Positions 2,573-51,818 of a DNA stretch of 64,000 nucleotides are shown here, piece after piece. A program made the translations under genes and the position numbers. Under the pieces are notes generated by a model. It saw only the letters and a program-made list of their open reading frames with translations, did not search any database and was not told the origin of the DNA. Source of the stretch: a virus. The stretch is from the IMG/VR virus record IMGVR_UViG_3300001533_003623, positions 1 through 64,000 of that record, one strand, 5' to 3'. How positions within the stretch are numbered: the stretch's first letter is position 1; every line of letters begins with the position of its first letter.

Positions 2573-2577
2573 TTTTT
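2550..2577 (+). terminator. Rho-independent terminator
   Basis: Perfect 7-bp stem AGCAGGG (2550-2556) / CCCTGCT (2564-2570) with a 7-base loop, followed by AATTTTT. It overlaps the stop codon of the small gene before it and immediately precedes the tRNA-Ala promoter, so it separates two transcription units. The left arm is a copy of the dispersed GCAGGGAAG motif. Confidence 0.7.
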
Positions 2578-2581
2578 CGTC

Positions 2582-2609
2582 TTGACTTTTGTGTATTTTG
2601 GTGTATAAT
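2582..2609 (+). promoter_or_regulatory. Sigma70-type promoter for tRNA-Ala group
   Basis: TTGACT (2582-2587), 16-base spacer, TATAAT (2604-2609) preceded by TGG TG. Transcription would start near 2616, just ahead of tRNA-Ala at 2622. The same architecture recurs at 11835, 22675, 31863 and 51798(-). Confidence 0.75.
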
Positions 2610-2621
2610 ATGGTTGTCTGG

Positions 2622-2697
2622 GGGCCAAGGGATACTGTTGGGAGTATCACTAGTCTTGCAAACTAGGTTTTCGCCGGTTCGATTCCGGCTTGGTCCA
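2622..2697 (+). tRNA. tRNA-Ala (TGC)
   Basis: Acceptor GGGCCAA/TTGGTCC (one G-T), D-stem GATAC/GTATC, anticodon stem CTAGT/ACTAG with loop CTTGCAA (anticodon TGC), T-arm GCCGG-TTCGATT-CCGGC. Discriminator A; CCA is not encoded (A-CTA follows). Confidence 0.92.
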
Positions 2698-2699
2698 CT

Positions 2700-2873
2700 A
2701 TGCTAATGAAAAAAATAGTCATTACACACATAAAAGACCATAGATTAGAAGAAATTGGTCTGTGTGTTGGCCAAGTAGTTTGGTTATTGCAAAAGAACCC
2801 ATTGATTATTAAGGTCAATCACTATAGTAAGTTGTGCTTAAGAGACTTGATAGAATATGAGTATCAACAATAA
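2700..2873 (+). CDS. FeoA/SH3-like small protein, 57 aa
   Basis: The reading frame starts 2 bases after tRNA-Ala (ATG at 2700, second ATG at 2706). The pattern RLEEIGLCVGQVV followed by NPLIIKV and CLRDLI matches the compact beta-barrel of FeoA-type domains (R-L-E-G-L..G..V, P-L..I.V, L-R...I). In bacteria such domains regulate FeoB or the DtxR family by binding proteins. No strong ribosome site is visible, so expression is uncertain. A FeoA assignment is inference from a short pattern. Confidence 0.35.
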   Translation: MLMKKIVITHIKDHRLEEIGLCVGQVVWLLQKNPLIIKVNHYSKLCLRDLIEYEYQQ

Positions 2874-3045
2874 TGATGTGTCACCTACATACTAGCTATA
2901 GATGGTAAAGTGGTGAGGTAATCAGGATAAGCTTAATCCTGGCGAGTAGTGGTTTAGCGGCCATGAAGCGCGACACATGCTACAGAACAGCCCGACTATG
3001 AATCGGTAACTGAAAGTTGTGTGACACGAGGGAGAGACCCGACAT
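2874..3045 (+). other. Non-coding, potentially structured stretch between FeoA-like gene and tRNA-Gly
   Basis: 172 bases with no credible gene. ATGTGTC (2876-2882) can pair with GACACAT (2972-2978). Within this lies a hairpin CAGGAT/ATCCTG with a 7-base loop (2923-2941), and further on CCGA/TCGG with a 7-base loop. The arms do not assemble into a tRNA (no T-arm before the closing stem). It could be leader/processing RNA of the tRNA transcript or a separate small RNA. Confidence 0.35.
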
Positions 3046-4257: not shown

Positions 4258-4530
4258 ATGTTAAAGAAGAGCGACATTAAGATAGAATACACCAAGGGCA
4301 AAGGCCCAGGCGGTCAACATAAAAACAAAGTGGAGACCATGGTAGTCGCTACACATATTCCGACTGGAATTAAGGCAAGCGTAGACGGTCGAAGTCGCAA
4401 GGCTAATCAAGTTGCGGCTCTTAAAGAACTAGAGTACAGAGTACGACAAAAAGGATTGGAACTACAAGCTAAAGCCAACAGTTGCCCCATCAGATATTGT
4501 GCGGACTTTCAAGAGCATATCAGCCATTGA
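4258..4530 (+). CDS. Release-factor-like GGQ protein, interrupted by IS element
   Basis: Class-I release factor catalytic domain without codon-recognition domains (ArfB/PrfH type). These hydrolyse peptidyl-tRNA on stalled or cleaved ribosomes. KGPGGQHKNKVET (about residues 15-27) holds the GGQ motif, followed by the typical THIPTGI and GRSRKAN segments. The family should continue into a basic tail with a TDHR motif, but around residue 71-74 the frame runs into transposase sequence and stops at 4530. The missing tail is found intact after the element at 5914-6012. The truncated protein keeps GGQ but lacks the ribosome-binding tail, so it is probably inactive. Confidence 0.75.
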   Translation: MLKKSDIKIEYTKGKGPGGQHKNKVETMVVATHIPTGIKASVDGRSRKANQVAALKELEYRVRQKGLELQAKANSCPIRYCADFQEHISH

Positions 4531-4684
4531 GTTGTTCAAGAAGTTCTATGCACTTAAAAACTTCTACTCTCGTTGTGGTTCATTGTGGTCGGAAGGAAAA
4601 TTCATTAGCACTATTGGTTTTGTCAGTGCTGATACAATTAAAAGATACATTCAAGAGCAAAAAGAGTTTGATGAGGACGAGTGA
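4475..4684 (+). pseudogene. tnpA: IS200/IS605 tnpA 3' remnant
   Basis: In the frame ending at 4684 the sequence reads PTVAPSDIVRTFKSISA..., then SLWSEGKFISTIG and TIKRYIQEQ. This is the C-terminal part of Y1 (IS200-type) transposases, including the helix with the catalytic tyrosine (K-R-Y-I). The HUH half and the element's left end are missing. The remnant abuts release-factor sequence near 4470. It overlaps tnpB by GTGA at 4681, the junction expected in a native tnpA-tnpB pair. No start codon with a ribosome site is visible. Confidence 0.7.
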
Positions 4685-5886
4685 AGATATTAAGAGCATA
4701 CAGATATAGGTTGTATCCAACGAAAAAACAGGAACAACAATTAAAACAACAATGTGGAAACTGCCGTTTCCTTTGGAATAGGTTTCTTGACATGAACCAA
4801 CGGCAGTATGAAAATACAGGCAAGTTTGTGTTTGCTTATGAACTCATTACTTCCATTCCCGAACTCAAAAAAGAACATGACTTCCTCGGACTTACGTTTA
4901 GCCAATCGCTTCAACAAGTAGGTCGTTTTTTTGACAGAGCATTAAAAGACTTTATCGCAGGCATCCGTGAGTTTCCAAAGCACAAGAAAAAGAAGTATCA
5001 AGACGGATTGACCGTTCCACAAAAGTTCCGCTTAAACAAAAAGTTTGTGTTCATTCCAAAGATTGGTGAAGTTCAATGGGTTAAACACAGACCATATAAA
5101 GGTAAAGTCAAAAGTATCACCGTTAAGCAAGATGGCGACCAGTGGTATTGCTCGGTTTTGTGTGAACTAAGAATTAAACAACCAAAAACAAATACAGATA
5201 ATGTTGTTGGCATAGATGTAGGTCTGAAAACATTTGCCACATTGTCCGATGGGACAACAGTTGAAAACGAACGAGTATTAAGAAAGCACGAAAGAAGGTT
5301 GAACAAAGCCCAACGCATACTTTCTCGGAGAAAGAAAGGTGGGCAAAACAGAAACAAACAACGGGTCAAGGTTGCGAAACTTCATCGTAAAGTCCGACAT
5401 GTAAGAAGTAATTTCCAACATCAAATCACAAGTCGTATGATAGCCAAATATGATGGATTTGCTTTGGAAACACTGAACATTGAAGGTATGATGAAGAACC
5501 ACAATCTTGCTAAAAGTATAGCCGATGTTGGTTGGTATAGTTTTAAGCAAAAATTGAAGTATAAGTCAGAGTGGAGTGGCAAAGTGTTTCTTGAAATAGG
5601 AACATTTGAGCCGAGTAGCAAAACTTGTCATTGTTGTGGATGGAAGGACACAGACCAAATGCTTCAAGACCGAACATTCTGTTGTGAACAATGCGGAATG
5701 GATATGGACAGAGACTTGAATGCCGCTATCAACATTAGGAATATAGCGATTAAAGATATACCGTGGGACGCACGGGAATTTACGCTTGGGGATGATAAGA
5801 GGTTGCAGTCAGATAATGACAGTGCTTGTCGTAGAGCCAAGAAAAAACAATGCTTAGCCCTAACCGAACTTGCATCGGTTAGATAG
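4681..5886 (+). CDS. tnpB: IS605-family TnpB RNA-guided nuclease, 401 aa
   Basis: TnpB is the ancestor of Cas12 and cuts DNA next to a TAM, guided by an RNA from the element's right end. Visible: N-terminal AYRYRLYPTKKQ (OrfB helix-turn-helix), RuvC-I GIDVGLKTFATLS (catalytic Asp), RuvC-II with Glu in FALETLNI, zinc finger CHCCGW...CCEQCG, and RuvC-III Asp in DRDLNAAINI. All three acidic residues are present, so it may be active. GTG start overlaps the tnpA remnant stop. It ends in a Lys/Arg-rich tail. Without TnpA it cannot transpose alone, but could still act as a homing-type nuclease. Confidence 0.9.
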   Translation: MKILRAYRYRLYPTKKQEQQLKQQCGNCRFLWNRFLDMNQRQYENTGKFVFAYELITSIPELKKEHDFLGLTFSQSLQQVGRFFDRALKDFIAGIREFPKHKKKKYQDGLTVPQKFRLNKKFVFIPKIGEVQWVKHRPYKGKVKSITVKQDGDQWYCSVLCELRIKQPKTNTDNVVGIDVGLKTFATLSDGTTVENERVLRKHERRLNKAQRILSRRKKGGQNRNKQRVKVAKLHRKVRHVRSNFQHQITSRMIAKYDGFALETLNIEGMMKNHNLAKSIADVGWYSFKQKLKYKSEWSGKVFLEIGTFEPSSKTCHCCGWKDTDQMLQDRTFCCEQCGMDMDRDLNAAINIRNIAIKDIPWDAREFTLGDDKRLQSDNDSACRRAKKKQCLALTELASVR

Positions 5887-5887
5887 G

Positions 5888-5921
5888 CACGAAGCCACGG
5901 GGCTTGCCCCGCGGTGCGTCA
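5888..5921 (+). mobile_element. IS605 right end / likely omega-RNA 3' region
   Basis: Directly after tnpB lies GCACGAAGCC followed by the hairpin CGGGGC-TT-GCCCCG and GTGCGTCAC. This is the layout of IS200/IS605 right ends: imperfect palindrome just before the cleavage site, with the tnpB 3' end plus this region forming the guide RNA scaffold. The guide would come from the next bases, which are release-factor gene sequence. The exact end was not determined. Confidence 0.6.
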
Positions 5922-6012
5922 CAGTAGAGGTGTCGTGACAGACCATAGAACTGGCAAAAAAGCATCATTAAAGCAAATTTTGCAAAAAGGTAAATTAGAC
6001 CTTTTGCAATAA
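5914..6012 (+). pseudogene. 3' fragment of the interrupted release-factor-like gene
   Basis: After the IS right end the frame reads VRHSRGVVTDHRTGKKASL, then QILQKGKLDLLQ and stop at 6010-6012. TDHR followed by a short helix and a G-x-L-D-x-L ending is the C-terminal signature of class-I release factors. This piece is in the same frame modulo 3 as the 5' part at 4258, consistent with insertion into one original gene of roughly 100 codons. Confidence 0.7.
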
Positions 6013-6013
6013 T

Positions 6014-6083
6014 GGCTCGGCCACCGGATGTGGAGGAAATTCTTCTAAAGTTTCCGTGGTGAGTTCGACTCTCACACGAGCTA
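6014..6083 (+). tRNA. tRNA-Arg (TCT)
   Basis: Anticodon loop CTTCTAA (TCT) on a stem extendable to 7 bp (GGAAATT/AGTTTCC), T-arm GTGAG-TTCGACT-CTCAC, acceptor GGCTCG/CGAGCT with a G-A mismatch at the seventh position. D-arm CCAC-CGGAT-GTGG has a 5-base loop, the same compact form as tRNA-Ile. It begins 1 base after the release-factor fragment's stop. Confidence 0.78.
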
Positions 6084-6131
6084 CATACAGACTTAACTCA
6101 ATCACAACAATTTTTTCACACAGGCTCAACA

Positions 6132-25043: not shown

Positions 25044-25639
25044 AGACAGTAAAAGATGTATTCTATGATGCAATTAAACATGGAAACTGGGATAATGTCT
25101 GTAGGGTATACGAAAAGATTACTGGAGAAGAGGCACCCCCCTTCCCTGCTCAGAATAACATCCTTGATACAGCAATGGTCGAATCTCAACCAACTAACAT
25201 CATGGATGAATCCATGGTAGAAGATGAACACGATATTGTAACTAGCACAACAGAAGACCCGCAGCAAAATGGCGATGTAGACTTCACTATGCCACAAAAG
25301 CCACGCACGCATACTGATGGCCAAACAAGACAATGTCGCCGTGAACCTATTGGAAAACCTAAAAACACTTGGGTAGACGACGGTACCGAACACGCAGATG
25401 AAAGCGTAAAGATTAGACCTGAGCTTGGTGTTCCGCACGTACGAAAGCGTGATGATAGCAGAGACCCAAATATTGGTATAGATACAGGTAAAAAAACACT
25501 AGTAATGTGCGCTTTGTGTGGTAGGGAAGAAGTAGTTTCATCAAGATTAGCTATTGGTTATAATCCAGACCCAGAAGAAAATACGTATCGTTGCAACAAT
25601 TGTCTATCCCCAACATCACGGACAATGAGGAATCGATAA
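25040..25639 (+). CDS. Hypothetical protein with C-terminal zinc finger, 199 aa
   Basis: Short N-terminal helical domain, a long acidic/polar linker, then CALCGREEV...CNNC near the C-terminus, a four-cysteine zinc finger. ATGA overlap with the previous gene. Ends 2 bases before dnaB. May be a helicase or primase accessory; function unknown. Confidence 0.5.
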   Translation: MKTVKDVFYDAIKHGNWDNVCRVYEKITGEEAPPFPAQNNILDTAMVESQPTNIMDESMVEDEHDIVTSTTEDPQQNGDVDFTMPQKPRTHTDGQTRQCRREPIGKPKNTWVDDGTEHADESVKIRPELGVPHVRKRDDSRDPNIGIDTGKKTLVMCALCGREEVVSSRLAIGYNPDPEENTYRCNNCLSPTSRTMRNR

Positions 25640-25641
25640 TA

Positions 25642-28203
25642 ATGATAGAAGAACCTATTCATCCGTTTTTATTAAAAGATGAAAAGATGTCTGATAAAGC
25701 TGCTGAACGAGCAGTTTTGGTGGGGTTATTGCAATATGGTGAAGACGCATACTTAGACATTGCAGATTTTCTTGATACAGGTAGCTTTACTGACCCGGTT
25801 AATCAAGCAGTGTATAAATGCATACGTCATCTATATGAAGAGCAAAACATCAAGCAATTCGACCAATCATCTTTGTTGGCGTGTGCTAATATGCTTGGGT
25901 ATGGTGTGTTCTTCGAAAAGCCATCCGATATACAGCATTTGCGAAGCTTATTAAATGGTAGAGTATTGCTGGAAAATGTACGCACGTGGGCAGCGCAAAT
26001 ACGTAAGTTACAAGTTGGAAGACTATTGCGTGACCAATTGCAGCAAGCAGCCATAGATATTGAGGAAATAAGAGGCACGGAATCTATTGAGTCTATATTG
26101 GGTGTTGCAGAAAGCGTGGTGTTCGATTTCAGCAACTTGCTACACTCAAGCGAAACTTCTAATCCATCATCTATTGGCGATGGTGTAGATGAATACTTAG
26201 ACAATATCGAAAGCAATCCAGTAAGTATCGTTGGTATTAGTAGCGGCATGTCATATTACGACCAAGCGATTGGTGGTGGGTTTCGACGTAAGACTGTATC
26301 ATTGATTGGGGCACGCCCCAAAGCATTGCGTTATGGGTCTTTGGTTTACACAATAAATGGACCAGTACCGATTGAAAAAATTCGCGTTGGTGATATGGTA
26401 TCACATCCATTTGATGGACCAAAAGTTGTTAGTGGTGTATACGACCACCCAAATACTAAAATATATCGAGTTCACTTCAAAGATGGTGACTATGTAGATT
26501 GTTGTGGTGACCACTTATGGGAAGTTTACAAAAGATATCCATATGGTTTTCTTAATAACAAAAAATCTGAACAGAAGACAACAAAAGAATTGATAAATAA
26601 CTTAACTATTGGTAGTGGCCACGAATATAAATGGGACGTTCCACTTAGTTACCCATTGTATTTTTCTGCACAATCCATAGAACTTAATGCATATGTTCTT
26701 GGCTTGTTGATTGGAGATGGTTCATTCCGTAACGCTATAACATTTTCTACAGCAGATGTAGAACTAATAGAATGTATAAAATCATCATTACCAGGTTATA
26801 GTATCAAATTAGAAATAGACACAGGAACATGTCAAACATATAGAATCAACGGTCTTCAAGATACAATTCGCTCACTAGGTTTATACAAACATAAAGCATG
26901 TGATAAGTTCATTCCAAAACACTATATCTACAACTCCGAACGGGTAAGATTAGATATACTACGTGGACTAATGGATACAGATGGCGATTGTACAATCAAT
27001 CATAATAATGGTAGTTCTAGGTCTAGATTTTCTACAATATCAAAGCAATTGGCAATAGATGTAAAAACAATAGTGCAATCTTTAGGTGGGTTGTGTAGTA
27101 TTACCATACAAAATGGAAACTACGATGGTAAACCACATAAGTCATATAGATGTGAAATAAGATTGCCATCAAACATAAATCCATTCAAGTTGCAGCGCAA
27201 AGCAAAAAGACACAACTCACGACAACATGGTGAACTAAAAAGAACCATTGTTAAAATTGAAGACCTTAACATAACAGATAATGCAAGATGTATTACAATT
27301 GATTGTGAAGATGGATTATTTATAACAGATAACTTCGTGGTTACCCACAACACCGGCAAGTCGATGCTATCAGTCAATATTGGTTTGCACATATCTAAAG
27401 AATTAGGTATACCAGTGTTGTATCTTGATACAGAAATGTCCAAAGAAGACCATTGGTCTCGTATGTTGTCGAATCTATGTCAAACTAAAGTAACAATCAA
27501 TGATTTAGAAGCAGGTAAGTATGCTAGCAACAAACTATATAAACAGTCTGTTAGACAAGCCGCCGACATATTGAAGAAATTACCATTAGATTATCTCAAT
27601 GTTTCTGGTAAACCATTTGAGGAAATTATCTCTATTATGAGACGATGGGTAACGAAAAACGTTGGTTTTGATGAAACTGGCAAACGCAAAGACTGTGTCA
27701 TTATATTTGATTACATGAAGATGATGAGCGGAGAAGGTCTAAATGATAGCTTAAAAGAATACCAAGTTCTTGGCTTTATGATGACTGCGCTACATAACTT
27801 TGCGGTACGCTATGATATGCCTATCGTTAGCTTTATACAACTAAATCGTGATGGAATAGACAAAGAGTCTACAGATGTCATAGCTGGTAGTGACAGGGTT
27901 TTGTGGCTGGTAACTAACTTCACGGTCTATAAGGCCAAGACCGCCGAAGAAATTGCAGACACAGGTCCGCAGCACGGCAATCGCAAATTAGTGCCTATTA
28001 GTGCTAGGCATGGTGAAGGATTAGAGCCTGGAGACTATATTAATGTTATGTTTACGGGTCAGTTTGGTAGAATAACTGAAGGAGAGACCAAACTTAATTT
28101 ACAAAGAAAACATCATGACGATATCGTAGATGATGTAAATGACGTACCGTTTAATGGAGACGCTGATGAAAATGAGTCAAGCGGTAGTCAACCAGATAAC
28201 TAA
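25642..28203 (+). CDS. dnaB: Replicative DNA helicase DnaB with intein, 853 aa (510 aa after splicing)
   Basis: Hexameric 5'-3' helicase. The N-terminal domain starts KAAERAVLVGLLQYGEDAY. The RecA-like motor has Walker A GARPK-TGKS, interrupted after Lys by the intein (residues 228-570). After the intein come LYLDTEMSKEDHW, VIIFDYMKMM (Walker B), and RHGEGLEPG near the C-terminus. GAGGAA lies 9 bases before the chosen ATG at 25642. Active helicase requires protein splicing because the P-loop is split. The primase gene overlaps the 3' end. Confidence 0.92.
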   Translation: MIEEPIHPFLLKDEKMSDKAAERAVLVGLLQYGEDAYLDIADFLDTGSFTDPVNQAVYKCIRHLYEEQNIKQFDQSSLLACANMLGYGVFFEKPSDIQHLRSLLNGRVLLENVRTWAAQIRKLQVGRLLRDQLQQAAIDIEEIRGTESIESILGVAESVVFDFSNLLHSSETSNPSSIGDGVDEYLDNIESNPVSIVGISSGMSYYDQAIGGGFRRKTVSLIGARPKALRYGSLVYTINGPVPIEKIRVGDMVSHPFDGPKVVSGVYDHPNTKIYRVHFKDGDYVDCCGDHLWEVYKRYPYGFLNNKKSEQKTTKELINNLTIGSGHEYKWDVPLSYPLYFSAQSIELNAYVLGLLIGDGSFRNAITFSTADVELIECIKSSLPGYSIKLEIDTGTCQTYRINGLQDTIRSLGLYKHKACDKFIPKHYIYNSERVRLDILRGLMDTDGDCTINHNNGSSRSRFSTISKQLAIDVKTIVQSLGGLCSITIQNGNYDGKPHKSYRCEIRLPSNINPFKLQRKAKRHNSRQHGELKRTIVKIEDLNITDNARCITIDCEDGLFITDNFVVTHNTGKSMLSVNIGLHISKELGIPVLYLDTEMSKEDHWSRMLSNLCQTKVTINDLEAGKYASNKLYKQSVRQAADILKKLPLDYLNVSGKPFEEIISIMRRWVTKNVGFDETGKRKDCVIIFDYMKMMSGEGLNDSLKEYQVLGFMMTALHNFAVRYDMPIVSFIQLNRDGIDKESTDVIAGSDRVLWLVTNFTVYKAKTAEEIADTGPQHGNRKLVPISARHGEGLEPGDYINVMFTGQFGRITEGETKLNLQRKHHDDIVDDVNDVPFNGDADENESSGSQPDN
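26323..27351 (+). mobile_element. Class 3 intein with LAGLIDADG endonuclease in DnaB P-loop, 343 aa
   Basis: The intein starts with Ala (ALRYGSLVYT) instead of Cys/Ser and ends VVTHN before Thr+1. All three residues of the class 3 WCT set are visible: Trp in GDHLWEVY (block B), Cys in ITIDCEDG (block F) and Thr in VVTHN (block G). Two LAGLIDADG-type helices, YVLGLLIGDGSF and LRGLMDTDGDC, indicate a homing endonuclease that may still be active. Insertion lies exactly inside the Walker A motif, between K and TGKS. Confidence 0.9.
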
Positions 28204-31802: not shown

Positions 31803-32167
31803 ATACATTCGACCAATTAGTGTGGCAACAGGTCCAGACTGTGCGACCTTCATCTATCGTACTTGACAAATTACACGCTCGCGCTATAATACAGGATAGG
31901 GTGGACGCGCTACGTTCCGATAAAATGGACGTTTTAGATACGCTCGTACAAATTGCGGCGGCTGCGCAAATATGTGCAGAGCAACTATTATTGCTAAGAC
32001 AGCAAGAAGAAGCTCCAAAACAAAGCGACTTACAGCATGAGTTGGAATCTATTGTGCAGCATATATTGGACAACATAACAGTAGCACAGCCTAAACAGCG
32101 CGGTGTATCTAGGCAGGTGTGTGAAATAGATACAGAGTTTTTGGAAAAATTGAAGGATATTGTATGA
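31799..32167 (+). CDS. Hypothetical helical protein, 122 aa
   Basis: Ala/Leu/Gln-rich helices with coiled-coil character (AAAAQICAEQLLLLRQQEEA). ATGA overlaps on both sides, the downstream one with dnaE. Contains a consensus promoter in its coding sequence (31863-31890). No family recognised. Confidence 0.5.
   Translation: MNTFDQLVWQQVQTVRPSSIVLDKLHARAIIQDRVDALRSDKMDVLDTLVQIAAAAQICAEQLLLLRQQEEAPKQSDLQHELESIVQHILDNITVAQPKQRGVSRQVCEIDTEFLEKLKDIV
31863..31890 (+). promoter_or_regulatory. Consensus promoter inside gene, upstream of dnaE
   Basis: Perfect TTGACA (31863-31868), 16-base spacer, perfect TATAAT (31885-31890). Lies about 270 bases before the dnaE N-terminal gene and could drive the polymerase operon separately. 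Confidence 0.65.
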
Positions 32168-34137
32168 CGACATACTTTCCTCTGCATGTGCATTCTCATT
32201 ACTCATTACTTGATGGATTAAGTAAACCATCACAAATAGCACGTAGATGTAAGGAACTAAATTTACCGGGCTCAGCTATTACTGACCATGGCAACATTTC
32301 TGGTGCTATTTCTTTTATGAAGGCTATGAAGGGACTTCAGCCAATTATTGGGTGTGAACTATACATAAGTCCAAACGATGCTACTATTAAAGATGGAGAC
32401 CGTACTTTATACCATCTTTGTGTTTTAGCAAAAAATATGGAAGGATGGCGCAGATTAGTACAAATCACAAGCGAATCCAATAAACCAGAGCACTTCTACT
32501 ATAAACCGAGATTGGATTTAGACCGATTAGCTAAATATGCAGATGGCAACTTAATTGCATTCAGCGGACACTTAGGCTCACATTTATCACACTGCATTTT
32601 TAAGGACATGGCGGTACATGACTGTAAAACCGCCGAAGAAGCCAAAGCCCTTACGTACCCTGATTGGGTACAACGCACTACAGATGCGGCTATGCGTCTA
32701 CGTGATATTTTTGGTAAAGATAATTTCTTTATAGAGATACAAGTTATTGATAGCAAGAATATGCCAGCGTGTGCCTTGCTTGCTACAGGTCTAAGGTATA
32801 TCTCTAAAAAAACAGGCATTCCCTGCATAGCAACACCAGATGCGCATTATGCAAAACCAGAAGATGCGTACGACCAAAGAATATTGTTGTGTAATGCCAT
32901 AAATACAAATTTCCAAACTATAGAAGAAAAGAAGGTAAGTGGTGAAAATATTGGAATGGGAGCGTTCTTTCGTTCACGCCAATATCATATACCATCTTAC
33001 GAAACAATGATTCAGTATGGTAATACCGAAGAAGAACTTGCTAATACTATGGTCGTTGCTCAAATGTGTGAGTCTTATGACCTGACATCACCACCTAAAC
33101 TACCTAAATTTCCATGTCCCGATGGAATGACTTCGCGACAGTACCTAACGAAGTTATTACACCAAGGCTGGATAGACCGACAACCGCAAATTCAGAACAC
33201 AATCAACAGAACACATCATACTGAACAAGAATACAAAGACAGACTTAATGAAGAATATAAGATTCTAACAGATGTGGGTCTATCAGATTATTTTCTAATT
33301 GTTAATGATATTATCCAATGGGCACGTAGCCAAGGTCAGCTTACCGGCGCTGGTCGTGGTAGTGCTGCTGGTTCATTAATTCTATACATACTTGGCGTTA
33401 CTCACGTGGACCCAATTGAGTTTGACCTGTTGTTTTCAAGGTTTTATAACGCTGGTCGTAATACAGCCGAACGTATCTCTTTGCCGGATGTTGATATGGA
33501 TTTTGAAATTCAACAACGGTTTAAAATATTAGACTATATACGTCAAAGGTATGGGCGTGAACACGTTGCGCAAATGCTCACGTTTACCAGACTACAGGGG
33601 CGTGGTGCATTAAAAGATGTCATGCGTGCTCATTCTGCTATGTCATTTGAAGAAATGAATCGTGTGACAGCATTTATACCAGATGAAGCTGAAATCAGCG
33701 ACCAATTACAAGCAGTTAAAGAGTTAGATAAGCAGGAAGGTGGGGATGGTGAAGCGTCTATTATACGCTGGGCATTAGAACATCACGCCGACGACCTTAA
33801 ACAATGGGCGTATATTGATGATGACGGCAACATACAAGGACCATACGCTAAGCTGTTTGAACAGGCTATTAGAATAGAAGGCACTAAAAAATCACAAAGC
33901 AAACACGCCGCTGGTATTATTATCGCTCAAGATGTATTATCTGATATATGTCCAATGGTATATGACAAATCTTCTGGTGAGACAATATGTGGAATGGAAA
34001 TGAATGACTTAGAAGATATGGGCAATGTAAAGATAGATATATTGGGCGTAGCAATGTTGGATAAATGCCACGGAATACTCAATTTACTAAAATATGGAAC
34101 TCTATGTAAGGAAAATAATGAATCAACCAACAGTTGA
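32164..34137 (+). CDS. dnaE: DNA polymerase III alpha (DnaE), N-terminal part, 657 aa
   Basis: Replicative C-family polymerase, first of two genes. PHP domain at the N-terminus (FPLHVHSHYSLLDG with metal-ligand His residues). Palm-domain glycine loop GAGRGSAAGSLI, catalytic acidic motif LPDVDMDFE with Asp442 and Asp444, and a further conserved HAAGIII block near residue 580. The gene stops just after KIDILGVAMLDKCHGIL, where ordinary DnaE continues into the finger region. The continuation (DVDIYN ... VFQLEG) begins the gene at 36685. ATGA overlap with the upstream gene. Confidence 0.9.
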   Translation: MTTYFPLHVHSHYSLLDGLSKPSQIARRCKELNLPGSAITDHGNISGAISFMKAMKGLQPIIGCELYISPNDATIKDGDRTLYHLCVLAKNMEGWRRLVQITSESNKPEHFYYKPRLDLDRLAKYADGNLIAFSGHLGSHLSHCIFKDMAVHDCKTAEEAKALTYPDWVQRTTDAAMRLRDIFGKDNFFIEIQVIDSKNMPACALLATGLRYISKKTGIPCIATPDAHYAKPEDAYDQRILLCNAINTNFQTIEEKKVSGENIGMGAFFRSRQYHIPSYETMIQYGNTEEELANTMVVAQMCESYDLTSPPKLPKFPCPDGMTSRQYLTKLLHQGWIDRQPQIQNTINRTHHTEQEYKDRLNEEYKILTDVGLSDYFLIVNDIIQWARSQGQLTGAGRGSAAGSLILYILGVTHVDPIEFDLLFSRFYNAGRNTAERISLPDVDMDFEIQQRFKILDYIRQRYGREHVAQMLTFTRLQGRGALKDVMRAHSAMSFEEMNRVTAFIPDEAEISDQLQAVKELDKQEGGDGEASIIRWALEHHADDLKQWAYIDDDGNIQGPYAKLFEQAIRIEGTKKSQSKHAAGIIIAQDVLSDICPMVYDKSSGETICGMEMNDLEDMGNVKIDILGVAMLDKCHGILNLLKYGTLCKENNESTNS

Positions 34138-36684: not shown

Positions 36685-38790
36685 ATGAGTAAGTTAGTGT
36701 TTGGATGTGGTTGTGAATTTCCAATTGCGAACTGTGAACAAGACATATATGCTGACCATCATACTGGCCCACTCCCGTTAGGCATTGATGTGGATATTTA
36801 CAATATTTCACACACATGTCCAAGAACGTGGGCGTTATTTTCCGAAGGTCACACAAAGGGGGTATTTCAGTTAGAGGGTAACTTAGGTAGAACGTGGGCA
36901 CGTAAGATACAACCAGAAAACTTAGAAGAGTTGTCTGCATTAATTGCACTTATAAGACCAGGATGTCTCAAGGCATTATCCGGTAACCCACCTAAATCTA
37001 TGACTCAAAGATTTAAGGACCGCAAACATAAACTAGAAGATATAGAATATATGCATCCTGCGCTTGAGTCAGTGCTTGATACAACGTACGGGGTTCTGGT
37101 ATACCAAGAACAAAGTATGAAACTAGCCGTGACTCTTGCGGGTTTTGATTTGCAACAAGCAGATGTGCTTAGAAAAAGTATAGGCAAGAAAAAAGCTGAC
37201 ATCATGATTAAAGTTCGTGATGAATTTATAGGTGGTTGTACCACAACAGAAATTGTGACCAAAGAACAAGCAGAAGAGATATTCGGCTGGATACAAGAAA
37301 GCCAAAAATACAGTTTTAACAAGTGCTTATCACCAACAACCGTGGTAGAAACTATTGATGGCAAATACTACACATTAGAAGACGTAGATATTGGAACACA
37401 AATTACTTCACCAAATGGTCCAACAACCATTATTAACAAATATGATAATGGAATACAGGATGTATTTGAAATTACTCTTGAGTCTGGTAAGACAATTCAA
37501 TGTACTATGTCACATGAGTTTTTATGTAAAGACGGTCTAAAACACACGCTATCCGAAATTTTGGAACACGAACTTAAGATTGTGTGTCAAGACCAAGCAT
37601 TATCTCAAGCAGCACAACGGCGCATCATTCATGGCCATACTGGATGTAGTCATTCAACTGAAAAAGTAATTTCAGTACGAAAAATTGGTAAAATGCGCAC
37701 GGTAGATATTGAGGTTGACAATCCATCTCATGTGTTTTATGCCAATGGTGGTGTCGCAACTTCCAATTCACACGCCGTATCCTATGCAGAAGGGGGATAC
37801 TGGACCGCCTATCTCAAGGCACACTTCCCTGCTCAATTCTATTGCTCATTTCTACACGGCGCACAATGGAAACAAGATACTAGTGAAGAAGTATATGAAT
37901 TGGTGAATGATGCCAAACTGAATGATATAGTTGTACGAGTACCAGATTTTAGAGACCAGCAAACAGTACCATATCTCAACGGTACCGAGGTGTGTTTTGG
38001 TATTGGTGATATCAAAAATATTGGTAAGGCCGCTCTACAAAAACTTTACGTCGCTATAAACGACATTGATAAGCCCGTACGAGAGTGGTCGTGGATGGAC
38101 TACATTGCACTATTCTCTAGTCGTGTATCAAGTACAGTCAATGAGGCATTGGTATGTTGTGGTGCTTTGGATTATTACGGCAAGCCTCGTACTACCATGA
38201 TGTATGAGATAAACTTATGGAAAGAGTTGACCAATAAAGAAAAAGAGTGGATAGTAGAACACATGCCGTATGCAGACATGATAACGGCGCTGCGTGAATG
38301 TGCTCATACAAAGAAAGAAGGCGGTGGATGTCACTCAGTTAAAAGGGTGCAGGCAGTAGAAAACATTATTGCCATGATAGAAAAACCACCGCACTCTCTT
38401 TATGATACGGCAGACTTTATAGCGTGGTGTGAAGATAAATATCTAGGTGCATCTCTAACATGTAGCCGTGTAGATGGCTGTATTAAAGCTGTTGAAGCTA
38501 ATGTTACATGTAAAGACGTTGTAAAAGGTTATACTGGATATACAGTTATAGCTGTTGAGGTTACTAGAATAAAACAAGTGAAGACTAAAAAGGGCAAAAC
38601 ACCAGGACAAAACATGGCGTTTATGAGTGTAGCGGATAGCTCATGCTCATTAGATGATGTAGTAGTGTTTCCAGATAAGTGGCGTGAATACAAAGACATA
38701 CTATATGAGGGTAATACAGTTTTGATGCAAGGAGAACCATCACATAAAAAGGGTGGCGGTTTTACTGCGAAAAAGTTTTGGCAGATTTGA
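36685..38790 (+). CDS. dnaE: DNA polymerase III alpha (DnaE), C-terminal part with mini-intein, 701 aa
   Basis: Second half of the split polymerase. It begins with a Cys-rich VFGCGCEFPI region, then resumes the DnaE sequence at DVDIYN, SEGHTKGVFQLEGN, LIRPG and YQEQSMKLAVTLAGFDLQQA, followed by RKSIGKKKAD (fingers). The intein (residues 214-361) splits FNK-SHAVSYAEG. After it come the helix-hairpin-helix region and an OB-like MAFMSVADSSCSLDDVVVF. Summed length of both genes without intein is about 1,210 aa, normal for DnaE. Weak ribosome site. Confidence 0.9.
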   Translation: MSKLVFGCGCEFPIANCEQDIYADHHTGPLPLGIDVDIYNISHTCPRTWALFSEGHTKGVFQLEGNLGRTWARKIQPENLEELSALIALIRPGCLKALSGNPPKSMTQRFKDRKHKLEDIEYMHPALESVLDTTYGVLVYQEQSMKLAVTLAGFDLQQADVLRKSIGKKKADIMIKVRDEFIGGCTTTEIVTKEQAEEIFGWIQESQKYSFNKCLSPTTVVETIDGKYYTLEDVDIGTQITSPNGPTTIINKYDNGIQDVFEITLESGKTIQCTMSHEFLCKDGLKHTLSEILEHELKIVCQDQALSQAAQRRIIHGHTGCSHSTEKVISVRKIGKMRTVDIEVDNPSHVFYANGGVATSNSHAVSYAEGGYWTAYLKAHFPAQFYCSFLHGAQWKQDTSEEVYELVNDAKLNDIVVRVPDFRDQQTVPYLNGTEVCFGIGDIKNIGKAALQKLYVAINDIDKPVREWSWMDYIALFSSRVSSTVNEALVCCGALDYYGKPRTTMMYEINLWKELTNKEKEWIVEHMPYADMITALRECAHTKKEGGGCHSVKRVQAVENIIAMIEKPPHSLYDTADFIAWCEDKYLGASLTCSRVDGCIKAVEANVTCKDVVKGYTGYTVIAVEVTRIKQVKTKKGKTPGQNMAFMSVADSSCSLDDVVVFPDKWREYKDILYEGNTVLMQGEPSHKKGGGFTAKKFWQI
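37324..37767 (+). mobile_element. Mini-intein in DnaE C-terminal gene, 148 aa
   Basis: Begins with Cys (CLSPTTVVETIDG, block A), block B TMSHEFL with the Thr-x-x-His pair, block F TVDIEVDNPSHVF, and ends GVATSN before Ser+1 of the extein. No endonuclease domain, so it is too small to home. The penultimate residue is Ser where most inteins have His. Its insertion is between FNK and SHAV of the polymerase, a few residues from the site used by cyanobacterial DnaE split inteins. Confidence 0.88.
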
Positions 38791-50174: not shown

Positions 50175-51773
50175 TCAAACGTTGTACACAAATCGTTTTT
50201 TACCACAATCCCAAATACGCGCATACCCATGCTGTAAACACCATTCTTTTTCAGTGATGTTACTAGGGCACCCAGTCTTAGACTTCATCATAGATTGCTT
50301 ACTAATCCTTTGACGGGGTTGGCTAATCTTTACATAAGAATAGTCAGCCCCTATTTCTTTATCTAAAACAAATCCCATTTTGTGATACACAGTTCCAGAT
50401 GACCATCTGTTATCAGACCACGTAGTAATTTTATGAATGCTGTTTTGCTTACACCATTGTATGGCATACTTCAATAGTTTGGACGCGCCACCAAGCACAG
50501 ACACACCACGAACAAACGCTAATCTATCCAATACTATATCTTCAGTCATCCTATGATGATTATTGAGAGACAGCACACCACATAATTCATCCTGGTAGTA
50601 TAATCCAAAATATACAAGAGCAGCTCTACGACATCCTTGTATATGGAATTGCTGTATAAAATTTTTACCAATACTTGAATCAATTATATCTACGTAGCAC
50701 TTTCTACCATAAACAGACTTATTTTTGTGTAGGACTGCGTCTAAGTAACCTTGTACCTGCGGCTGACGTAATAACCACTCGTCTGAAAAAATAGTTATCA
50801 AGCGGATATCTTGTTCTAGACATTGTTTATATTTATCATAATGATAGTTTCTTAATCTTGGTTCTAGCGAAAGTTCATGATGCCAATGTAGTCCGCAGTA
50901 TTCAATACCTAATCGTAAATCGTCATCATAGAAGTCTATTTCTTTACCATTTAGGATGGTTCGATTAGGTTGAAAAGAGTCTCCTAAAAATACGCCTAGA
51001 CTATCCTGTTCAACAAAAGAAGACATATGATATGATTCAGCACCATACCTTTCCATACACGTTTGAATAGCTTTGTTTTTAATAGCTTGGTCTTGTAGTG
51101 TACATGAAACACCATATTTCTTTAAGCACGTTTCACGTATTCTGTTTTGTACTTTAGGTGATTTTGCAGCATATTCAAAACCATATCGTTGCAAATTTGT
51201 GTCCCTAATCTTTTGTTTAACTTCTTCTGATTGAGATGGGTGACTAGTGCCATATTTATTAATAGACGTAGCCTTTACTCTGGCTTTATGTTCGTCGGAT
51301 TGTGTGTAAGACTCTACTCCATACTTTTTCAAACAAGTCGCTCTACGTTTAGCAATGTTTTGGTTTATCTTAGGGCGTTGACCCCAATAACAGTTAGCAG
51401 GAGAACAGGGGGCGGTATTATCTCGTCTACGTAACACCAAGCCCTTACTCCATCCGTTTTGAATAGACCAATCATAAAAAGCTTGATAATCACTAGACCA
51501 TTCTTTGGAAGCTATCCTACGAGTCTTCATGGATTTCCAACTATTATAGACTGGGTGTTTAATTGGCGCAGTATACTTATCATTATACCTATGCATTCTT
51601 TGACTAGCGGCTTTGCGATTATAACACCCACAACTTTTAGTTCTGCCAGAAGTTACACTAGTTGTTCTTATGCTTTTGACAGTACCACAATCACATTTGC
51701 ATGACACCTTACCATTACATGGTAATTCTAATACAGTTAGGTAGTTAAACTTTTGTCCGATATGAATTTTCAT
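50175..51773 (-). CDS. Hef/NUMOD-type homing endonuclease with acetyltransferase-like C-terminus, 532 aa
   Basis: N-terminal zinc motif (CKCDCG...SCGCYNRK) followed by four or more NUMOD-like DNA-binding repeats of form (T)CLKKYGV... (about residues 140-275). A PD-(D/E)XK nuclease core then reads NGKEIDFYDDDLRLGIEYCG with WHHE. The C-terminal part (YQDELCGVLSLNN, then LDRLAFVRG and ITTWSDNRWSSG) is like a GNAT fold. Start ATG 51773 has a perfect AGGAGG. Own promoter at 51798-51825, so it is an independently expressed mobile gene between the two gene blocks. Confidence 0.75.
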   Translation of the reverse strand: MKIHIGQKFNYLTVLELPCNGKVSCKCDCGTVKSIRTTSVTSGRTKSCGCYNRKAASQRMHRYNDKYTAPIKHPVYNSWKSMKTRRIASKEWSSDYQAFYDWSIQNGWSKGLVLRRRDNTAPCSPANCYWGQRPKINQNIAKRRATCLKKYGVESYTQSDEHKARVKATSINKYGTSHPSQSEEVKQKIRDTNLQRYGFEYAAKSPKVQNRIRETCLKKYGVSCTLQDQAIKNKAIQTCMERYGAESYHMSSFVEQDSLGVFLGDSFQPNRTILNGKEIDFYDDDLRLGIEYCGLHWHHELSLEPRLRNYHYDKYKQCLEQDIRLITIFSDEWLLRQPQVQGYLDAVLHKNKSVYGRKCYVDIIDSSIGKNFIQQFHIQGCRRAALVYFGLYYQDELCGVLSLNNHHRMTEDIVLDRLAFVRGVSVLGGASKLLKYAIQWCKQNSIHKITTWSDNRWSSGTVYHKMGFVLDKEIGADYSYVKISQPRQRISKQSMMKSKTGCPSNITEKEWCLQHGYARIWDCGKKRFVYNV

Positions 51774-51780
51774 AAAAAAA

Positions 51781-51818
51781 ACCTCCTCATGTGATATATT
51801 ATACACCACATGGGAGGT
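51781..51818 (-). promoter_or_regulatory. Inverted repeat spanning -10 box and ribosome site
   Basis: ACCTCC-T-CATGTG (51781-51793) mirrors CACATG-GGAGGT (51807-51818), with one extra base, around ATATATTATACAC. The repeat covers the -10 box and the AGGAGG of the homing endonuclease gene. Candidate operator, or an RNA hairpin that hides the ribosome site. Confidence 0.55.

What the first reader, a model, noticed from the sequence alone, without database searches (positions are those of the whole stretch)
4258..6012. IS605-type tnpB element has split a phage release-factor-like gene
GGQ-domain sequence (4258 to about 4470) passes into the C-terminus of a tnpA, then a complete tnpB, then the element's right-end hairpin, then the missing TDHR tail of the same release factor, ending at 6012. 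The two release-factor pieces are in the same frame modulo 3. The tnpA is reduced to its catalytic-tyrosine helix. The element has therefore lost transposition but kept all RuvC residues of TnpB, so the nuclease may now protect this locus by cutting genomes that lack the insertion.
Basis: partly seen in the sequence, partly recalled or inferred. Interest (0 to 1): 0.72.

Follow-up and report, generated by a model that had tools for sequence, protein, structure and literature searches.

The report
Broken jumping gene inside phage gene
A small bacterial jumping gene landed inside a virus gene for a mini release factor and then lost its left half, so it can no longer jump but still carries an intact-looking RNA-guided DNA-cutting enzyme; each part is of a known kind, and whether the enzyme still does anything is untested.

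Summary
In an 84-kb virus contig, an ArfB-like (GGQ-only) release-factor gene is interrupted by the right-hand part of an IS200/IS605 element. Related phage contigs have the gene intact; in two of them the same neighbours (tRNA-Arg, sigma-like gene) follow it. Two other viral contigs carry the full-length element (143-aa tnpA plus tnpB), about 94% identical to the window copy.

The element's right end sits exactly where the release-factor tail resumes (5922/5923). On the left, a deletion removed the element's left end, tnpA codons 1-73 (with the HUH motif) and about 22 release-factor codons. The release factor is therefore truncated, not just split, and the shared reading frame means nothing.

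TnpB keeps its three RuvC acidic residues and zinc-finger cysteines, and the presumed omega-RNA region is unusually conserved. However, the dead tnpA remnant shows the same low dN/dS (0.058) as tnpB (0.063), so TnpB's intactness reflects history before the deletion, not selection for a new role. A drive against uninserted sibling phages remains plausible and untested: no sibling with a matching empty site was found, and the nearest relatives match only 14 of 20 guide positions.

The parts
4258..4470 (+). N-terminal 71 codons of an ArfB-like/RF-1-domain (GGQ-only) release-factor gene
   Evidence: PF00472 57 bits, profile 7-80/116; 62% identical to the syntenic L030/L008 gene and 49% to L007; only RF-1 match in the 84-kb record
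4466..4475 (.). left junction: deletion breakpoint joining release-factor codon ~71 to tnpA codon ~73/74, inside a short shared A-rich stretch (GCTAAAGCCAAC here, GCAAAACCAAC in L002)
   Evidence: blastn similarity to L002/L003 starts at 4471 = L002 2791; MAFFT alignment
4471..4684 (+). tnpA (Y1/HUH transposase) remnant, about residues 74-143 of 143; keeps Tyr132-equivalent and YIxEQ, lacks the HVH motif (residues 66-68)
   Evidence: PF01797 positions 61-121/121; full-length L002 tnpA 2573-3004; L002 tnpA aligns with solved IS200/IS605 TnpAs; numbering
4681..5886 (+). tnpB, 401 aa, GTG start overlapping the tnpA stop; RuvC D179, E263, D345; zinc-finger CxxC at 316 and 335
   Evidence: only copy in the record
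5756..5922 (+). presumed omega-RNA scaffold and right end of the element: 3' end of tnpB plus hairpins; only 2 differences from L002 in 167 nt against ~7% elsewhere
   Evidence: one difference from L002 (T there, C here at 5912) opens one pair of the right-end hairpin
5895..5914 (+). right-end hairpin CCACGGGG-CTTG-CCCCGCGG
5923..5942 (+). presumed omega-RNA guide = first nucleotides of the interrupted target (AGTAGAGGTGTCGTGACAGA)
   Evidence: right end of element defined by L002 against L007/L008; rule from PMC8612924
5923..6012 (+). C-terminal 29 codons (S94 onward in L008 numbering) and stop of the release factor
   Evidence: alignment to L006/L007/L008/L018

Best explanation
An IS200/IS605 element carrying tnpA and tnpB inserted into a phage mini release-factor gene, immediately 5' of codon S94. 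A later deletion fused release-factor codon ~71 to tnpA codon ~74. It removed the left end, the N-terminal half of tnpA with its HUH motif, and ~22 release-factor codons. The remnant cannot move itself: it has no HUH site, and without a left end a TnpA supplied in trans is not expected to excise it either. The release factor loses part of its C-terminal region and is probably non-functional. TnpB and its right-end/omega-RNA region remain structurally intact, so TnpB may still be made and loaded with a guide that matches the uninterrupted release-factor site. Shown here: insertion, both junctions, truncation, intact catalytic residues. Inferred: order of events, loss of release-factor function, omega-RNA production, nuclease activity. 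The default reading is a recent, decaying selfish remnant.
For: Intact, continuous homologues in L006, L007, L008 and L018. Synteny: release factor, tRNA-Arg(TCT), sigma-like gene in L030 (same contig as L008) and L007, continuing through ThyX and ClpP in L030. Intact element in L002/L003, with similarity starting at 4471 and ending at 5922-5925. The right end falls exactly where the release-factor tail resumes. RuvC and zinc-finger residues are present. The omega-RNA/right-end block is conserved: 1/43 against 61/358 third-position differences, p = 0.007 (boundary 5756 chosen after seeing the differences, so the p-value is optimistic). No other TnpA, TnpB or RF-1 match in the 84-kb record. No Rfam intron match.
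Against: The left end of the intact element, and hence its TAM, could not be located, because both full-length contigs share one insertion site. The nearest relatives are only ~50-62% identical in the release-factor protein, so the exact deleted release-factor sequence is inferred, not read. A metagenome assembly error at the left junction cannot be excluded without reads.
Confidence: 0.9

Rival explanations
1. The immobilised TnpB acts as a homing or drive nuclease: in co-infection it cuts the intact release-factor gene of sibling phages, and repair copies the remnant into them (or the uncut phage outcompetes), as TnpB does for IS605 elements in plasmids.
For: Intact RuvC and zinc-finger residues and conserved omega-RNA block. 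TnpB drive in plasmids was reported to need the TnpB RuvC site and not active TnpA (PMC11870625). The guide would match the uninterrupted site by construction, and the window itself holds only one exact copy of the seed.
Against: tnpB is no better conserved than the dead tnpA remnant. No viral contig has the exact 20-nt target. L007 and L008 match only 14/20 guide positions and 9/12 of the first twelve. One pair of the right-end hairpin is lost. No second phage with the same remnant was found.
Confidence: 0.3
2. IStron-like or intron-like element that is spliced out of the mRNA, restoring the release factor.
For: Insertion inside a gene, both parts in the same frame.
Against: No group I or II intron match in Rfam. 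About 22 release-factor codons, including the conserved RTY motif, are absent from both flanks, so splicing could not restore the protein. Only ~210 nt precede tnpB, and they are tnpA coding sequence.
Confidence: 0.02
3. The two release-factor pieces still work as two genes (GGQ protein and TDHR peptide), i.e. domesticated fragmentation.
For: Both fragments are free of stops and frameshifts; a GTG at 5935 could start a short tail peptide.
Against: The region around RTYDF is deleted. 9 of 37 columns invariant in three relatives are changed in the N-terminal piece. The fusion ORF ends in 19 out-of-frame residues.
Confidence: 0.05
4. Assembly chimera between the phage and another contig carrying the element.
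For: Metagenomic contig; left junction not at an element end.
Against: The window copy differs from the only other known copies by 6-7%, and the right junction is an exact biological boundary in the release-factor reading frame.
Confidence: 0.04

Closest known systems
IS200/IS605-family element with tnpA and tnpB (full-length close relative in L002/L003; characterised members ISDra2 and IS608)
   Same: Y1 transposase C-terminal half, complete TnpB with RuvC and zinc finger, right-end hairpin, tnpA/tnpB start-stop overlap
   Different: Left end, HUH motif and the first ~73 codons of tnpA deleted; transposition-dead
TnpB-driven gene drive of IS605 elements in plasmids (PMC11870625)
   Same: Multi-copy replicon, guide set by the insertion site, active TnpA reported not to be needed
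   Different: Here a phage; activity not tested; no uninserted sibling known
RF-1-domain (ArfB-like, GGQ-only) release-factor genes of phages (phrog_20323, phrog_3122)
   Same: GGQ motif and KGPGGQHKNK context
   Different: Truncated and interrupted in the window

Membership tests
IS200/IS605 element | Y1 transposase with HUH and catalytic Tyr | tested here: not met
   Only Y1_Tnp positions 61-121; HVH of L002 tnpA (66-68) is outside the retained part. The intact relative L002 meets it, so the window copy is a derived remnant of this family
IS200/IS605 element | TnpB with RuvC D-E-D and zinc finger | tested here: met
   D179, E263, D345, CxxC at 316 and 335; PDB TnpB matches
IS200/IS605 element | subterminal hairpin at the right end | tested here: met
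IS200/IS605 element | left end with hairpin next to a TAM | tested here: not met
   No element similarity left of 4471; left end deleted in the window. Not located in L002 either
Active TnpB-omegaRNA nuclease or drive | guided cleavage of the empty site next to the TAM | not testable with these tools
   TAM unknown; L007 and L008 have GATTTT just 5' of the site
ArfB-like release factor | GGQ domain plus C-terminal tail in one protein | tested here: not met
   GGQ present; ~22 codons and continuity with the tail lost. Met in L006-L008
IStron | group I intron ribozyme | tested here: not met
   No Rfam match except tRNAs in the window

The most novel reading that the evidence does not exclude
A transposition-dead TnpB, fixed in a phage gene, has become a homing nuclease of the phage: it drives its own inheritance at the release-factor locus during mixed infections without any transposase or left end.
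Probability: 0.12. Interest if true: 0.6.

Novelty: new member of a known kind. Interest (0 to 1): 0.27.

Why it matters
If TnpB is still active here, it would be a natural test of whether an RNA-guided nuclease can persist by homing alone once its transposon is dead, and in a phage rather than a plasmid or chromosome. If not, it is a routine example of IS605 decay. The dN/dS comparison with the tnpA remnant shows why intact catalytic residues in a recent remnant are not evidence of domestication.

Tried and rejected
Group I intron/IStron: no Rfam match, and the missing codons rule out restoration by splicing. TAM by empty-site comparison of L002: its target gene has no uninserted homologue among viral contigs; hairpin inspection of L002 1980-2440 was inconclusive. 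Close bacterial hosts of the element: genome contigs gave only Methanococcoides TnpBs at 38-48% identity, and plasmids and phages gave none above 60%. Other copies of the right end: only L002/L003. Sibling phages through ThyX: nearest is L030 at 58% protein identity. Exact 20-nt target in viral contigs: none. Literature: no held paper found that describes TnpB interrupting a phage release factor.

Full report
What is there. The window is part of an 84,015-base virus record. At 4258 an RF-1-domain ORF starts (PF00472, 57 bits) but covers only profile positions 7-80 of 116. From about 4471 the DNA is the C-terminal half of an IS200-type tnpA (PF01797 positions 61-121), then a 401-aa TnpB (4681-5886), then hairpins, then codons SRGVVTDHRTGKKASLKQILQKGKLDLLQ ending at 6012.

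Both junctions were defined with relatives. Intact release-factor genes: L006 (122 aa), L007, L008 (127 aa) and L018 carry GGQ, RTYDF/RTYNY and the D/NH tail motif in one continuous ORF. Synteny supports orthology. In L030 (same contig as L008) the gene is followed by tRNA-Arg(TCT), the sigma-like gene and the same run of genes through ThyX and ClpP; in L007 tRNA-Arg and the sigma-like gene follow it. Full-length element: L002 and L003, two viral contigs with identical flanks, carry a 143-aa tnpA and tnpB, 92-94% identical to the window at DNA level (L003 has a 16-bp frameshifting gap in tnpB). Similarity to the window starts at 4471 (L002 2791, tnpA codon 73/74) and ends at 5922-5925. The release-factor tail resumes at S94 (5923), so the right junction is the element's natural end. 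The left junction is not: the left end, tnpA codons 1-73 and release-factor residues ~72-93 are all missing. The simplest history (inference) is insertion followed by one deletion at a short A-rich stretch shared by the two sequences.

Consequences. The HVH metal-binding motif (residues 66-68 in L002 tnpA) is gone, while the Tyr132 helix remains, so the transposase is dead. Without a left end, trans-mobilisation is not expected either. The release factor lacks about 22 residues, and its ORF reads 19 out-of-frame residues before stopping at 4528-4530. The shared frame of the two pieces is incidental.

TnpB. RuvC D179, E263 and D345 and the two CxxC pairs are kept, and TnpBs of solved structure align over residues 5-357. 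The 3' block 5756-5922 is unusually conserved (third-position differences 1/43 against 61/358, p = 0.007; the boundary was chosen after seeing the data), as expected for an overlapping omega RNA and right end; RNA folding gives stable hairpins. One difference from L002 (C instead of T at 5912) opens a pair in the right-end hairpin.

Does this show a retained function? No. The tnpA remnant, which cannot work, has the same ratio of nonsynonymous to synonymous change as tnpB (NG86 0.0185/0.317 against 0.0189/0.298; codons 11:3 against 56:15, p = 1.0). Most divergence between the copies therefore probably predates the deletion, and there has been too little time to see selection on TnpB at this locus. 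The tnpA sample is small (14 codons), so this is absence of evidence for domestication rather than proof against it.

Could TnpB protect or drive the locus? By the known rule (guide = sequence flanking the right end, TAM = insertion motif; PMC8612924; PMC11870625) the guide would be AGTAGAGGTGTCGTGACAGA and would match the uninterrupted gene of siblings. Such a drive is reported for plasmids, and active TnpA is not needed for the advantage. But no viral contig holds that exact 20-nt site, and the two nearest relatives match 14/20 positions, 9/12 in the first twelve, probably too few for cutting (inference). L007 and L008 have GATTTT immediately 5' of the site, compatible with a T-rich TAM, but the TAM is not established.

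Verdict. It is a decayed IS605 insertion in a phage gene: ordinary in kind, with a testable but unproven homing possibility.

Noticed in passing
window 6011-6085: Probable tRNA-Arg(TCT) that ARAGORN misses here (anticodon stem can extend to 7 bp around CTTCTAA), abutting the release-factor stop; ARAGORN calls a tRNA-Arg(TCT) in the same position in L030 and L007.
   Followed up: partly
window 32164-34137 and 36685-38790: DNA polymerase III alpha is encoded in two separate genes (PHP+NTPase, then finger onward) 2.5 kb apart with several other ORFs between; the second carries a mini-intein-like insert between FNK and SHAVSY.
   Followed up: partly
window 25591-28203: DnaB-like helicase interrupted by an intein-like stretch with a LAGLIDADG domain.
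   Followed up: partly
window 50175-51809 (-): Protein with DUF7487 and a Mom-like/GNAT acetyltransferase domain.
   Followed up: no
L003 around 3730: A 16-bp deletion breaks tnpB in a copy otherwise identical to L002 at the same site, showing ongoing decay of this element.
   Followed up: partly
L002 2422-2610: A 62-aa small ORF upstream of tnpA in the full-length element, no Pfam match; possible accessory gene.
   Followed up: no
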